Assembly (NCBI RefSeq): GCF_000420945.1
Contig: NZ_ATVX01000001.1
Coordinates: 186,001-250,000, forward strand
Direction: 5' to 3'
Length of the DNA stretch: 64,000 nucleotides
From: Butyrivibrio sp. VCB2006
GTDB taxonomy: Bacteria; Bacillota; Clostridia; Lachnospirales; Lachnospiraceae
In this document: piece by piece, positions 3,758 to 44,428 of the stretch
Layout of the letters: every line of letters begins with the position of its first letter
Numbering within the stretch: the stretch's first letter is position 1
Notes under the pieces: model-generated
What the model saw: the letters and a program-made list of their open reading frames with translations, nothing else
Databases searched by the model: none
Told to the model about the DNA's origin: nothing
Made by a program: the position numbers and the translations under genes

Positions 3758-5683
3758 ATGGTAAATAACGTTATTTACTTTGAAATTGCATCGCTTCCGA
3801 TCTTTGTCGTTCTGATGATAGCAACTATTACCAGGAAAATGGTTAAGGGCAGGACGAATTTTCTTTTGTTCCTGATCATTATCTTTGCCTTTGTGGCTAC
3901 ATTCAGCGACACTGTGGGAAATGTTATCGGTAAACATTTTCCCCTTAATGAAGCTGGAGTTATCGGCATAACAGTGTCTAACTACGTTTATTTCACAGCC
4001 AGAAGCGGTATGAATGCGGTTTATACATACTATCTGTTTTCGGTAACCAGAACCTGGTATCAGATAAGACAGTTTTGGAAAAGACTCATAATCCTGCTTC
4101 CGTACCTGATCACATTATGGATGCTTCTTTTCAATAAAAAGACACATTATGTTTTCAAGGTTACCAAAGAAGTGGGCTATGAAAGGGGCAGCCTTATCCT
4201 TGTGGTGTATGGACTTGCCGCTTTGTATATGGTCTTTGGAATAATATATCTGGTACTTAAAAGGCATCTGCTTAGTTTATCCGAGTGCCTGTCAATCGCC
4301 ACACTATATGTATTTAATGTGGTGGGTGTTATTATCCAGTACTTTTATTCAAATATGCTGGTGGAATGCTATTTTACCAGTATGACGCTTCTTTTCATTG
4401 TTATTTTTGTTCAGAAGCCTGAGAAAAAGATTGATATGAATACGTCACTTCCCGGATATTTCGCCTACAAGGAAGAAATAGGCAAGATTGAGAGTACCGG
4501 ACAGAAGGTTGAGATTATCATAGCCAGTATCGCCAATGCAGAGGAACTTAATAACTACCTTGGTGAGAAAGCCTATTACGAATATATTTACAACATGAAC
4601 AGGGCTGTAGTGGCCTATGGCAAAAAAGAAAAAGTAGATTTCGATCTGTATTTTGAGACTCCCGGAAACTTTTATTTTATTGTTGAGGACAAGGACTACA
4701 ATCCGGCCCAGGCTATTCCGGAGGTTAGAGATAAGATAAGAAACTTAAACGGCAGCATTTCAGCCATGGGAGTTAAAGCGGACCTTAGGATCGTGTCAGT
4801 TCTTTTTCCTGAGGATATCAACAGTGCAAACGAGCTTATAAGATTCGGTCATGATTTTGTCAGATATACCTCAGGTAAGATATTCTGCCATGCGGATCAG
4901 ATCCTTGGTCAAAGAAACTATCAGATAGCCAGCAAACTGGATGAGATATTGGGAAACGCTATTGACAATCAGTCCCTGGAGGTGGATTTCTTCCCTATCT
5001 GGTCAGCTTCCCTGGAAAGAAAGATGTTCTATGCGGCAGCGCCAAAGGTTAGAAACGAAGCTTTTGGAGAAATCGATACGGATACCTTGGAAGAAGCGCT
5101 CATAGCAAGGGGCTCGGAAGTACTTATGGATGAGTACGTTATTGAAAGGGTATTTGACTATATTGGGGCAGGAAATCTTGCAAAAGAGGGTATGTCCTAC
5201 GTTGTTGTTAAGCTTTCCAGATCTCTTGGTATGCAGACAAACTTCACGGATAGAATATGGAATCTTAGGGGGAAGTATAATGTTCACCCGGAGCAGGTTT
5301 GTTTTTCAATAAAAGAGTCAGGAGCATCCACATCCGGAACCTTTGATGAGAATATTAAAAAGCTGTCCTTGCAGGGCTACAGAATTGCAATTGATGGCTA
5401 TGGAAATGGCTACTCCAATGTTAAGCGTATTGCTGAGTTGCCTATAAGCTCAGTAAGGCTTGATAAGAGCATGCTGGCCCAGGTGGATTCGGCAGGCGGA
5501 AGAGCAGTCTTAAGTGGAACTATCAGGACACTTACAAGTATTCCTCTTGCGGTAGTTGCCAGCGGTGTGGATGACAAGAAGACAAGAGATATGCTGTTTA
5601 ATATGGGATGTGACCTGATGCAGGGTAAGTTCTTTGATGCATTTGAGGAGAAGGACAATGAAAAGAATTCTGATAGTAGATGA
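3758..5683 (+). CDS. Seven-TM protein with degenerate GGDEF and EAL domains
   Basis: Residues 1-230 contain seven hydrophobic segments. The middle region (~230-400) has the spacing of a diguanylate cyclase domain, but the GGDEF site reads TPGNF, so synthesis of c-di-GMP is not expected. The C-terminal ~220 residues align with EAL phosphodiesterases: the EAL site reads AAPKV, the DFG-like segment reads IDGYGNGYSNV, the Lys-Asp region reads VRLDKSML, and the last motif reads MQGKFFDAF. Most metal and catalytic residues are missing, so it is probably a c-di-GMP or protein binding sensor rather than an enzyme. It starts 4 bp after the kinase-DegV gene with an AGGAAG ribosome site and overlaps the next gene, so it belongs to the same operon. 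Confidence 0.8.
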   Translation: MVNNVIYFEIASLPIFVVLMIATITRKMVKGRTNFLLFLIIIFAFVATFSDTVGNVIGKHFPLNEAGVIGITVSNYVYFTARSGMNAVYTYYLFSVTRTWYQIRQFWKRLIILLPYLITLWMLLFNKKTHYVFKVTKEVGYERGSLILVVYGLAALYMVFGIIYLVLKRHLLSLSECLSIATLYVFNVVGVIIQYFYSNMLVECYFTSMTLLFIVIFVQKPEKKIDMNTSLPGYFAYKEEIGKIESTGQKVEIIIASIANAEELNNYLGEKAYYEYIYNMNRAVVAYGKKEKVDFDLYFETPGNFYFIVEDKDYNPAQAIPEVRDKIRNLNGSISAMGVKADLRIVSVLFPEDINSANELIRFGHDFVRYTSGKIFCHADQILGQRNYQIASKLDEILGNAIDNQSLEVDFFPIWSASLERKMFYAAAPKVRNEAFGEIDTDTLEEALIARGSEVLMDEYVIERVFDYIGAGNLAKEGMSYVVVKLSRSLGMQTNFTDRIWNLRGKYNVHPEQVCFSIKESGASTSGTFDENIKKLSLQGYRIAIDGYGNGYSNVKRIAELPISSVRLDKSMLAQVDSAGGRAVLSGTIRTLTSIPLAVVASGVDDKKTRDMLFNMGCDLMQGKFFDAFEEKDNEKNSDSR

Positions 5684-43580: not shown

Positions 43581-43665
43581 TTTTAAAATTAAGGATAGCA
43601 GTCTCCGGTAACAAATCCAATATATGGTTGACTGGAATTGACTGTATATAGAACATAGGAAAAAG

Positions 43666-43712
43666 AAACTACGGGTAAATCGGAATTTTCTTCGATTTAC
43701 ACGTAGTTTTTT
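43666..43712 (+). terminator. Rho-independent terminator after glyA
   Basis: Long stem: AACTACG plus GTAAATCG pairs with CGATTTAC plus CGTAGTT, with one internal mismatch, a 10-nt loop, then a T-rich tail. It lies about 86 bp after the stop. Confidence 0.92.
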
Positions 43713-44004
43713 CTTTTTACGGTGATTTTGATGGGGATATTGAAGTCAAAAAGTCTGACAAATCTCACTACTCGATGTAAATAACCAAGTGCATTGTTTG
43801 GAATATTGATAATTGTCTAATAGTAATTACGTGTGAAATGATAAAAAAGTCCTATGCCACGTAATGGCATCTGAAACAGGATTGAGTCAGGGAAGATGAT
43901 ATGCACGAATTGTATATAATGAATATACAATTATAATAATTAGCAGATAATTAAACAATTTACATGCAATTATCAAATTAATCAAATAAAAAACAAAATA
44001 TGTA
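43713..44004. other. Non-coding AT-rich gap with two hairpins
   Basis: No gene is seen. ATGCCA-CGTAA-TGGCAT (43854-43870) is flanked by TCCT and AGGA that can close an outer stem. AATTGTATAT-AATGA-ATATACAATT (43908-43932) is a perfect 10-bp hairpin. No promoter-terminator pair links them, so they may be remnants, operators or a small RNA. Confidence 0.5.
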
Positions 44005-44033
44005 TTGACAATTTAAAACCTCATGCATATAAT
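44005..44033 (+). promoter_or_regulatory. Perfect consensus sigma-A promoter of the candidate ncRNA
   Basis: TTGACA (44005-44010), exactly 17 bp, TATAAT (44028-44033). Predicted start is near 44040. No coding sequence lies in the ~390 bp downstream before a terminator. Confidence 0.9.
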
Positions 44034-44039
44034 AAAAGC

Positions 44040-44428
44040 ATCTAAAGAAACAAAATACTTCTCCAAAGATATTCAGATCCACCGGAGAAAGAAAGGCAGG
44101 TACAGTCCAAAGGGATAGTTAGTTAAAATATTCAGAGAAAGGATGGTACGGACCACCAAACTAAGAAGTTAGTATTATAAAAAGTATTAAAGATTTAAAG
44201 TTTTGTTTGTTAGGATTTAAAGTATTAGAACGACAGCTATCGAGTACATGATAAGTGGTAATTGTAATATAAACATCTTACAGCCACAGCATATGAATGC
44301 AAAAGTTAATGGAAAGAATGAGCTGAGAAACTGGAGGATCAGTCCGTTGGACGAAATAAAGGAAGTTAATAAGTACTCGGCATAGGGCAGAAGCAGGTTT
44401 TATCGATGAAGCTTCTGCCCTTTCGTTT
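44040..44428 (+). ncRNA. Candidate structured non-coding RNA, about 385 nt, class not recognised
   Basis: It is bounded by a perfect promoter and a terminator. Local helices include TTCTCC / GGAGAA (44059-44089), ACTAA-GAAG-TTAGT near 44160, GCAT-ATGA-ATGC near 44290, and GTCC-GTT-GGAC near 44342. A direct repeat GATTTAAAGT occurs at 44192 and 44214. No open frame of useful length exists. I checked by eye for tmRNA, RNase P RNA, 6S RNA and c-di-GMP riboswitch hallmarks and found none. The next gene has its own promoter, so this is probably a free-standing RNA rather than a leader. Confidence 0.65.
44384..44428 (+). terminator. Terminator of the candidate ncRNA
   Basis: 11-bp perfect stem AGGGCAGAAGC with GCTTCTGCCCT, a 16-nt loop, then TTTCGTTTT. 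Confidence 0.85.

What the first reader, a model, noticed from the sequence alone, without database searches (positions are those of the whole stretch)
44005..44428. Free-standing structured RNA with a perfect promoter ahead of a Pel locus
A flawless TTGACA-N17-TATAAT promoter drives a ~385-nt stretch with no open frame. It has several local hairpins and ends in an 11-bp terminator. The next gene has a separate promoter. A perfect consensus promoter implies strong expression. I do not recognise the RNA class: no tmRNA, RNase P, 6S or c-di-GMP riboswitch hallmarks are visible. It could be a new ncRNA family or a regulator of the exopolysaccharide genes.
Basis: partly seen in the sequence, partly recalled or inferred. 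Interest (0 to 1): 0.78.

Follow-up and report, generated by a model that had tools for sequence, protein, structure and literature searches.

The report
RNA with repeated ribosome-docking sites
Next to a glyA gene in a rumen Butyrivibrio sits a strongly promoted, apparently stand-alone RNA of a family missing from the RNA catalogue and found in many relatives of the gut-bacterial family Lachnospiraceae; it is built from copies of an unusually strong ribosome-landing sequence and ends in a tiny gene, so it may work by holding or sensing ribosomes, which has still to be tested at the bench.

Summary
In detail: a 12/12 sigma-70 promoter (44005-44033), about 385 nt without a long frame, an 11-bp terminator-like hairpin, no Rfam match. 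The RNA is conserved across Butyrivibrio, and relatives occur in about a quarter of the Lachnospiraceae genomes searched but hardly outside. Reading the relatives showed its build: 1-7 units, each an extended Shine-Dalgarno (AGAAAGG(N)AGGU), a fixed spacer (ACRGWCCA), a triplet at start-codon position (CCA, CCG, AAG; sometimes AUG) and usually an in-frame stop within four codons. The last unit carries AUG/UUG and a micro-ORF (5-23 codons, mostly Met-Asp) whose stop usually abuts the terminator; one genus (g33) departs from this. The window has three units (44090-44118, 44135-44164, 44327-44385), so 'no open frame' is not quite right. Each pairs with the 16S 3' tail more strongly than any of 49 window ORFs compared. 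It looks free-standing: the next gene is on the other strand in 16 of 37 loci. A Pel link is not supported; CsrA is missing in 8 of 20 carriers. Best reading, inferred: a multi-site 30S-docking (decoy or sensor) RNA. The new family is well supported; the mechanism about 50%.

The parts
44005..44033 (+). Promoter TTGACA-N17-TATAAT
   Evidence: 12 of 12; 29 of 29 extracted homologs keep it
44040..44428 (+). Predicted transcript (start inferred from the -10; end at the hairpin tail); no expression data
   Evidence: promoter and hairpin; conserved in 29 of 37 Butyrivibrio genomes and in 51 named Butyrivibrio contigs
44059..44089 (+). 5' hairpin TTCTCC/GGAGAA
   Evidence: 3 of 6 pairs with changes on both sides, 98.6% of cells paired
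44090..44118 (+). Unit 1: AGAAAGGCAGGTACAGTCCA + AAG GGA TAG
   Evidence: read; triplets; duplex with 16S tail -19.4 kcal/mol
44135..44164 (+). Unit 2: GAGAAAGGATGGTACGGACCA + CCA AAC TAA
   Evidence: read (-16.5 kcal/mol); can pair with unit 1 as GUAC-UCC/GGA-GUAC, no double changes so untested by covariation
44234..44325 (+). 3' domain closed by CAGC(44234-44237)/GCTG(44322-44325), with hairpins GTGGT(44255-44259)/GCCAC(44283-44287) and GCAT/ATGC(44289-44300)
   Evidence: closing helix: 100% of cells paired, 3 of 4 pairs with double changes
44308..44348 (+). Possible pseudoknot AATGG(44308-44312)/CCGTT(44344-44348) overlapping the start codon
   Evidence: 96.6% of cells paired but no double changes, so unproven
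44327..44346 (+). Unit 3, ribosome-binding site of the micro-ORF (GGAGG 44333-44337)
   Evidence: duplex with 16S tail -15.1 kcal/mol
44347..44385 (+). Micro-ORF TTG GAC GAA ATA AAG GAA GTT AAT AAG TAC TCG GCA TAG
   Evidence: same frame in 78 of 78 copies complete at the 3' end (80 extracted), 43 distinct sequences
44384..44428 (+). Terminator-like 11-bp hairpin starting at the stop codon, and its tail
   Evidence: 9 of 11 pairs with double changes

Best explanation
A stand-alone, strongly promoted RNA whose job is to engage the small ribosomal subunit. Each unit is an extended Shine-Dalgarno that can pair with the single-stranded 3' tail of 16S rRNA. Most units carry a triplet at start position that initiator tRNA should not read (CCA, CCG, AAG), so a docked 30S would be held without starting; the last unit has a real start (AUG or UUG) and a micro-ORF that mostly ends at the terminator. 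The RNA would thus titrate or sense free 30S subunits, with the terminal micro-ORF as the one productive site. Shown by sequence: promoter, repeats, distribution, in-frame stops, micro-ORF, usual terminator abutment. Inferred: expression, 30S binding, titration, any physiological output.
For: Units recur in arrays: 1-7 per locus in 26 loci brought in by covariance models and in 80 loci brought in by a unit pattern. Spacing of neighbouring units is 44-76 nt in 71 of 108 cases, 50-59 in 41. 69 units in L113-L138 pair with the 16S tail at mean -17.0 kcal/mol against -7.1 for shuffles and -5.4 for other DNA of the same loci (the unit model has an SD-like core, so this describes more than it tests). 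The three window units (-19.4, -16.5, -15.1) beat all 49 window ORFs compared (mean -7.8, best -13.2). The 16S tail was read in a Butyrivibrio genome and two other genera. Translation logic: a stop within four codons, in frame with the start position, in 45 of 55 units without UUG against 15 and 10 in the other frames, and in 90 of 126 non-terminal units against 15 and 41. Terminal micro-ORF in 39 of 80 loci: codon 2 is Asp/Glu in 36 of 39 (GAT 17, GAC 13, GAA 5, GAG 1) although the local GUCC/GGAY hairpin is intact in only 24 of 39. Promoters: 12 of 12 in 35 and at least 11 in 57 of 80 loci, against 0 and 3 of 80 on the reverse strand, 0 and 14 of 800 shuffles, 1 and 2 of 77 stretches further upstream.
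Against: No expression or binding data. The most conserved part of the unit (AGGUA..G.CCACC) reaches beyond the anti-SD pairing and is not explained by it. If start codons are missing on purpose, the in-frame stops after CCA/CCG are unexplained. In one other frame 41 of 126 units also have an early stop, so part of the stop signal may be a fixed UAA motif. In 8 loci of genus g33 the last frame is MGS.(L/F)(R/G)GG(T/I)S, with Gly at codon 2 and its stop inside the hairpin region, not before it; two divergent Butyrivibrio copies also have Gly at codon 2, and L114 has no terminal ORF by the script. GG/CC within the unit tends to pair in predicted folds, which would compete with docking. A tree-aware covariation test on Butyrivibrio copies found no significant pair (best E 0.7, and not a pairing one).
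Confidence: 0.5

Rival explanations
1. Protein sponge: the repeated unit is the binding site of an RNA-binding protein, as CsrB/RsmZ are for CsrA, and the SD likeness is incidental.
For: Repeat architecture, and purine-rich GGA in many units; the conserved core extends 3' of the SD; GG/CC pairing inside the unit.
Against: CsrA itself is absent from 8 of 20 carrier genomes, all given as at least 99% complete; other proteins were not tested. The in-frame stops and the terminal micro-ORF are not explained.
Confidence: 0.2
2. Tiny mRNA: the product is the micropeptide (MDSIV, MDEIV, MDNEQ, longer acidic peptides in Butyrivibrio), or the act of its translation; upstream units are ribosome standby sites or minigenes.
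For: Micro-ORF in frame in 78 of 78 complete Butyrivibrio copies; codon-level conservation of the acidic second residue; with the hairpin allowed anywhere within 59 nt, the stop is 0-4 nt from it in 35 of 38 loci having an AUG/UUG-GAY ORF, none found in 3. Acidic residues early in a chain pause or destabilise ribosomes in E. coli and can need EttA (passages of PMC11282234).
Against: Peptide sequence beyond residue 2 drifts in Butyrivibrio (13-codon group: 558 non-synonymous against 52 synonymous single-base codon differences over all pairs); genus g33 differs; several start-less units are not explained.
Confidence: 0.15
3. Antisense or base-pairing sRNA whose repeated unit is a multi-copy seed for mRNAs or for another sRNA.
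For: Highly conserved repeated sequence; strong promoter and, in many loci, a terminator.
Against: No target search was made; the start-position triplet and in-frame stops are not expected.
Confidence: 0.1
4. Cis-acting leader or attenuator of the downstream gene (GH3/Pel in the window).
For: In Butyrivibrio the GH3 gene is the next gene in 43 of 52 loci, and six of the other nine hold under 900 nt of downstream DNA; the stop codon overlaps the hairpin, so a terminating ribosome could block it (geometry).
Against: In L046 and L073 the next ORF is on the other strand, in L064 it is another gene; in other genera the next ORF is on the other strand in 16 of 37; no GH3 relative in 20 of the 26 loci L113-L138.
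Confidence: 0.05

Closest known systems
CsrB/CsrC/RsmZ sponge RNAs (recalled)
   Same: Free-standing RNA made of repeated binding motifs
   Different: Motif is a longer extended SD with fixed spacer, start-like triplet and in-frame stop; CsrA missing in 8 of 20 carriers; carries a micro-ORF
Minigenes such as lambda bar (recalled) and the two-codon mini-ORF of axe-txe (PMC8708949, abstract read)
   Same: Very short ORF acting through translation itself
   Different: The axe-txe mini-ORF acts in cis on one toxin gene; here several units lie in an apparently stand-alone RNA, most without a start codon
tmRNA (RF00023)
   Same: Short ORF that ends at a hairpin and follows a possible pseudoknot (tmRNA features recalled)
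   Different: No Rfam match here; the genome has its own tmRNA elsewhere with tag ANDNLAIAA
RNAIII-type dual-function RNAs (recalled)
   Same: Structured RNA that also encodes a small peptide
   Different: RNAIII blocks SD sites with C-rich loops (recalled); this RNA carries SD-like sequences itself
MgtL / EttA-dependent acidic leader peptides (PMC11282234, passages)
   Same: Acidic residues at the very start of a short ORF
   Different: No conserved downstream gene; ORFs of five codons in 23 of the 39 loci

Membership tests
Any Rfam 15 family | Score above the family's gathering threshold over the RNA | tested here: not met
   0 matches in the window; inside the RNA none at E up to 10; 14 of the 26 loci L113-L138 gave 7 matches (four tRNA, ZTP, TwoAYGGAY, glycine), none at the places of the units
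6S, RNase P, tmRNA | Covariance-model match at this locus | tested here: not met
   Matches over the cut-off lie elsewhere: C2:227051 (6S), C4:64318 (RNase P class A), C18:83031 (tmRNA); class B RNase P has none
CsrA sponge (CsrB type) | CsrA present in carriers | tested here: not met
   12 of 20 carriers have PF02599, 8 of 20 do not; the window's own genome has it
CsrA sponge (CsrB type) | Binds CsrA | not testable with these tools
   needs a binding assay
Cis leader / riboswitch | Conserved downstream gene in the same orientation | tested here: not met
   16 of 37 downstream ORFs on the other strand
Ribosome-docking (30S decoy) RNA | Repeated sites with unusually strong predicted pairing to the host's 16S tail | tested here: met
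   tail of the window's own draft assembly not found, that of a same-genus genome used
Ribosome-docking (30S decoy) RNA | Physical binding to 30S | not testable with these tools
   needs toeprint or gradient
Translated minigene | Start codon, in-frame short ORF, codon-level conservation | tested here: met
   terminal unit only; genus g33 differs; translation itself not tested
Structured RNA family | Compensatory base changes beyond relatedness | tested here: inconclusive
   0 of 500 shuffles reach the covariation score, but the tree-aware test has no significant pair

The most novel reading that the evidence does not exclude
A natural ribosome sponge: an RNA of the Lachnospiraceae made of tandem, mostly start-less ribosome-binding sites that hold 30S subunits by pairing with the 16S 3' tail, closed by a short, usually acidic micro-ORF that reads out how many free ribosomes there are.
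Probability: 0.33. Interest if true: 0.95.

Novelty: categorically new. Interest (0 to 1): 0.84.

Why it matters
An RNA family with matches in 91 of 334 Lachnospiraceae genera sampled has no match in Rfam 15. These are among the commonest bacteria of gut and rumen (recalled). If it binds 30S subunits, it would be a direct RNA control of translation capacity, a role ascribed so far mainly to proteins and ppGpp (recalled). The repeat array makes this testable by simple mutants and toeprints, and it offers a natural set of start-less, AUG and UUG sites with matched spacers for the study of initiation.

Tried and rejected
Divergent RNase P, 6S or tmRNA: rejected because 6S, class A RNase P and tmRNA were found elsewhere in the genome (class B none). 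T-box likeness of GGUGGUAC: considered from memory only; no Rfam T-box match. CsrA sponge: rejected as general function. Leader of GH3/Pel: see rivals. Long ORF through the units: 11 of 69 units hold an in-frame stop inside the 21-mer and only 20 of 69 have an upstream in-frame start. Viral copies: one viral-contig scan with the Butyrivibrio pattern gave 0. A miRNA-family match at 43657-43718 is an AU-rich hairpin just after glyA, taken as its terminator.

Limits of the counts. The tree-aware covariation test is my own script, negative. The unit matrix was built from 54 seeds of the same 26 loci that it then scanned. Of these 26 loci, L133-L136 are of the same genus as the window and add to the counts; units without UUG were counted there as non-terminal, so some AUG units may be terminal. 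The 80 loci come from 75 of the 101 genomes (a fifth planned batch was not fetched) and were chosen by a pattern that demands CCA or CCG at the start position, so the share of CCA/CCG is partly by selection; the stops are not. Script one search stopped on an error after part of the loci; one search repeats it with a filter for at least 4 T in the 9 bases behind the hairpin and replaces it. In one search the terminal ORF was accepted only with a hairpin within 6 nt of the stop, so abutment there is by selection; one search allowed up to 59 nt but asked for GAY at codon 2. By these scripts 41 of 80 and 42 of 80 loci have no terminal ORF. The 49 comparison ORFs are mechanical and some may not be genes. 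One search also gave short weak matches (E 0.002-0.009) in 5 of 24 genomes of other families, taken as chance.

Literature: 10 searches; only the listed rows (up to 15 each, title and start of abstract) were seen, and none describes such an RNA. Only open-licence full texts are held.

Full report
What is there. The promoter at 44005-44033 is perfect and is followed by about 385 nt without an ORF of 60 aa and by an 11-bp hairpin. Nothing in Rfam 15 matches. The same genome holds 6S, class A RNase P and tmRNA elsewhere, so the RNA is none of these.

Conservation in the genus. A DNA search of 61 genomes (own, 36 of the same genus, 24 of other families of the order) found it in 29 of the 37 of the genus; of the 8 without, seven are 60-81% complete and the eighth (G025) was found later by covariance model. 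Short weak matches in 5 of the 24 others are taken as chance. A 5' core pattern hits 51 named contigs, all titled Butyrivibrio, one match each, and no viral contig. All 29 extracted copies keep the promoter.

A hidden reading frame. In all 78 copies complete at the 3' end (80 extracted, two cut off by the locus end; unnamed and named copies overlap) GGAGG is followed 8-9 nt later by TTG and by 9-16 codons in one frame, and the stop abuts the hairpin; 43 sequences are distinct. Control: the 41 distinct ORF bodies are stop-free in 12 and 1 cases in the other two frames; frame 0 is stop-free by construction, the point being that its first stop lies at the hairpin. The amino acids drift.

Structure. 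On 35 sequences the 3' part has 97.0% of cells paired and 14 of 30 pairs with changes on both sides; no shuffle of 500 reaches the covariation score, and slid controls give at most 0.082 against 0.261. The closing helix CAGC/GCTG and the terminator hairpin carry most of the signal; the pseudoknot over the start codon and the unit1-unit2 helix show no double change and are therefore untested. A tree-aware test of my own found no significant pair, so part of the signal may be shared ancestry.

Beyond the genus. Two covariance models searched 392 genomes of the order and gave weak to moderate hits in other genera of the family, which by Butyrivibrio's lineage is Lachnospiraceae. Reading those loci showed repeated units. 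A matrix built from 54 of them finds 1-7 units near the hit at each of the 26 loci L113-L138 (four of them Butyrivibrio) and none further off in the same loci; shuffled DNA gives 0.015 hits per kb (two low-scoring hits near arrays are likely chance). A strict 17-base unit pattern is present in 101 of 397 genomes and 91 of 334 genera of the family, with one hit for the reversed control; outside the family it is in 1 of 375 genomes of the class, again with one control hit (391 genomes, 16 of them in the family). The pattern misses the window's own genome, whose units vary (AAG in unit 1, GGATGG in unit 2), so 101 is a lower bound.

Anatomy of the unit. Logo of 96 CCN units: roughly AGAAAGG(N)AGGUACRGWCCACCRARA.NUAA. 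In the first set the start-position triplet of 55 units without UUG is CCA 33, ATG 8, CCG 5, AAG 4, CCT 3, AGA 1, AAA 1, with an in-frame stop within four codons in 45 against 15 and 10 in the other frames. In the second set of 126: CCA 62, CCG 34, ATG 12, TTG 4, AAG 3 and others (CCR demanded of one unit per locus by the search pattern); stops 90 against 15 and 41. In 39 of 80 loci the script found a last unit with AUG (28), UUG (10) or GUG (1); 23 of these 39 ORFs have five codons, often MDSIV or MDEIV. Codon 2 is acidic in 36 of 39, while the hairpin that could also explain GAY is intact in 24 of 39. With the hairpin allowed up to 59 nt away, the stop lies 0-4 nt from it in 35 of 38 loci, none found in 3. 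In the first set a search for AUG/UUG followed by GAN or GGN gives a last ORF with Asp or Glu at codon 2 in 15 of 26 loci, Gly in 10 (8 of genus g33, whose stop lies inside the hairpin region, and two divergent Butyrivibrio), none in L114. Promoters score 12 of 12 in 35 and at least 11 in 57 of 80 loci; the reverse strand of the same stretches gives 0 and 3 of 80, shuffles 0 and 14 of 800, stretches 500-900 nt upstream 1 and 2 of 77.

Why ribosomes. The 16S tail, read in a same-genus genome and two other genera, is GGATCACCTCCTTTCTA or TAG-like thereafter (the window's own draft assembly has no match). 69 units pair with it at -17.0 kcal/mol on average against -7.1 for shuffles. Window units reach -19.4, -16.5 and -15.1; 49 ATG ORFs of at least 200 aa in the window average -7.8 with a best of -13.2. 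Units are mostly 44-76 nt apart (71 of 108), room for one small subunit each (inference).

What it is not. CsrA is missing from 8 of 20 carriers, all at least 99% complete. In 38 loci outside Butyrivibrio with terminal ORF and promoter, the next ORF is on the other strand in 16 of 37 (one has none), and 5 of the 38 RNAs are overlapped by some ORF of 100 aa. The first of those two recurs behind the RNA in 6 of 34 named loci with enough DNA.

How it may work. 30S subunits dock on the extended SD; without a start codon they cannot proceed; the terminal AUG/UUG gives a brief translation event that mostly ends at the terminator. Docking, titration and output are inferred. Acidic residues early in a chain pause or destabilise ribosomes in E. 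coli (passages of PMC11282234), which might be why codon 2 is so often Asp or Glu; this is a guess.

Literature. Ten searches listed no paper on such an RNA. In C. [quoted passage not shown] whether it is a member could not be tested, and its authors say its hypothetical ORF lacks an RBS. In PMC6429828 only passages found by four terms were seen.

Noticed in passing
L118 (G361), minus strand, about 3790-4200: Array of 7 units of which five in a row read AUG-NNN-NNN-UAA, a run of tandem three-codon minigenes.
   Followed up: partly
G679, G677, G378, G415, G721, G536: Unit matches at two separate places of one genome, so the RNA may occur in two copies there.
   Followed up: no
L239 (G905:C1:2097842-2097858): The only unit-pattern match outside the family; could be chance, since the reversed control also gives one.
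   Followed up: no
L018, L019, L020, L062: Extra DNA of about 100-200 nt or more between the 5' and 3' domains of the Butyrivibrio RNA.
   Followed up: no
L133-L136: Divergent same-genus copies with longer terminal ORFs (16-23 codons) that share Pro-Thr-Gln after acidic residues.
   Followed up: no
L113, L116, L117, L119, L120, L122, L128, L129 (genus g33): Last frame MGS.(L/F)(R/G)GG(T/I)S with Gly at codon 2 and the stop inside the hairpin region, an exception to the family rule.
   Followed up: partly
window 43854-43870: Seven-pair hairpin between glyA and the RNA, listed as terminator-like on the minus strand.
   Followed up: no
L131 610-774; L138 1955-2033; L121 241-347: TwoAYGGAY RNA, a ZMP/ZTP riboswitch and a glycine riboswitch in the neighbourhoods of distant copies.
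   Followed up: no
L113, L117: tRNA genes lie within about 200 nt of the RNA in genus g33.
   Followed up: no
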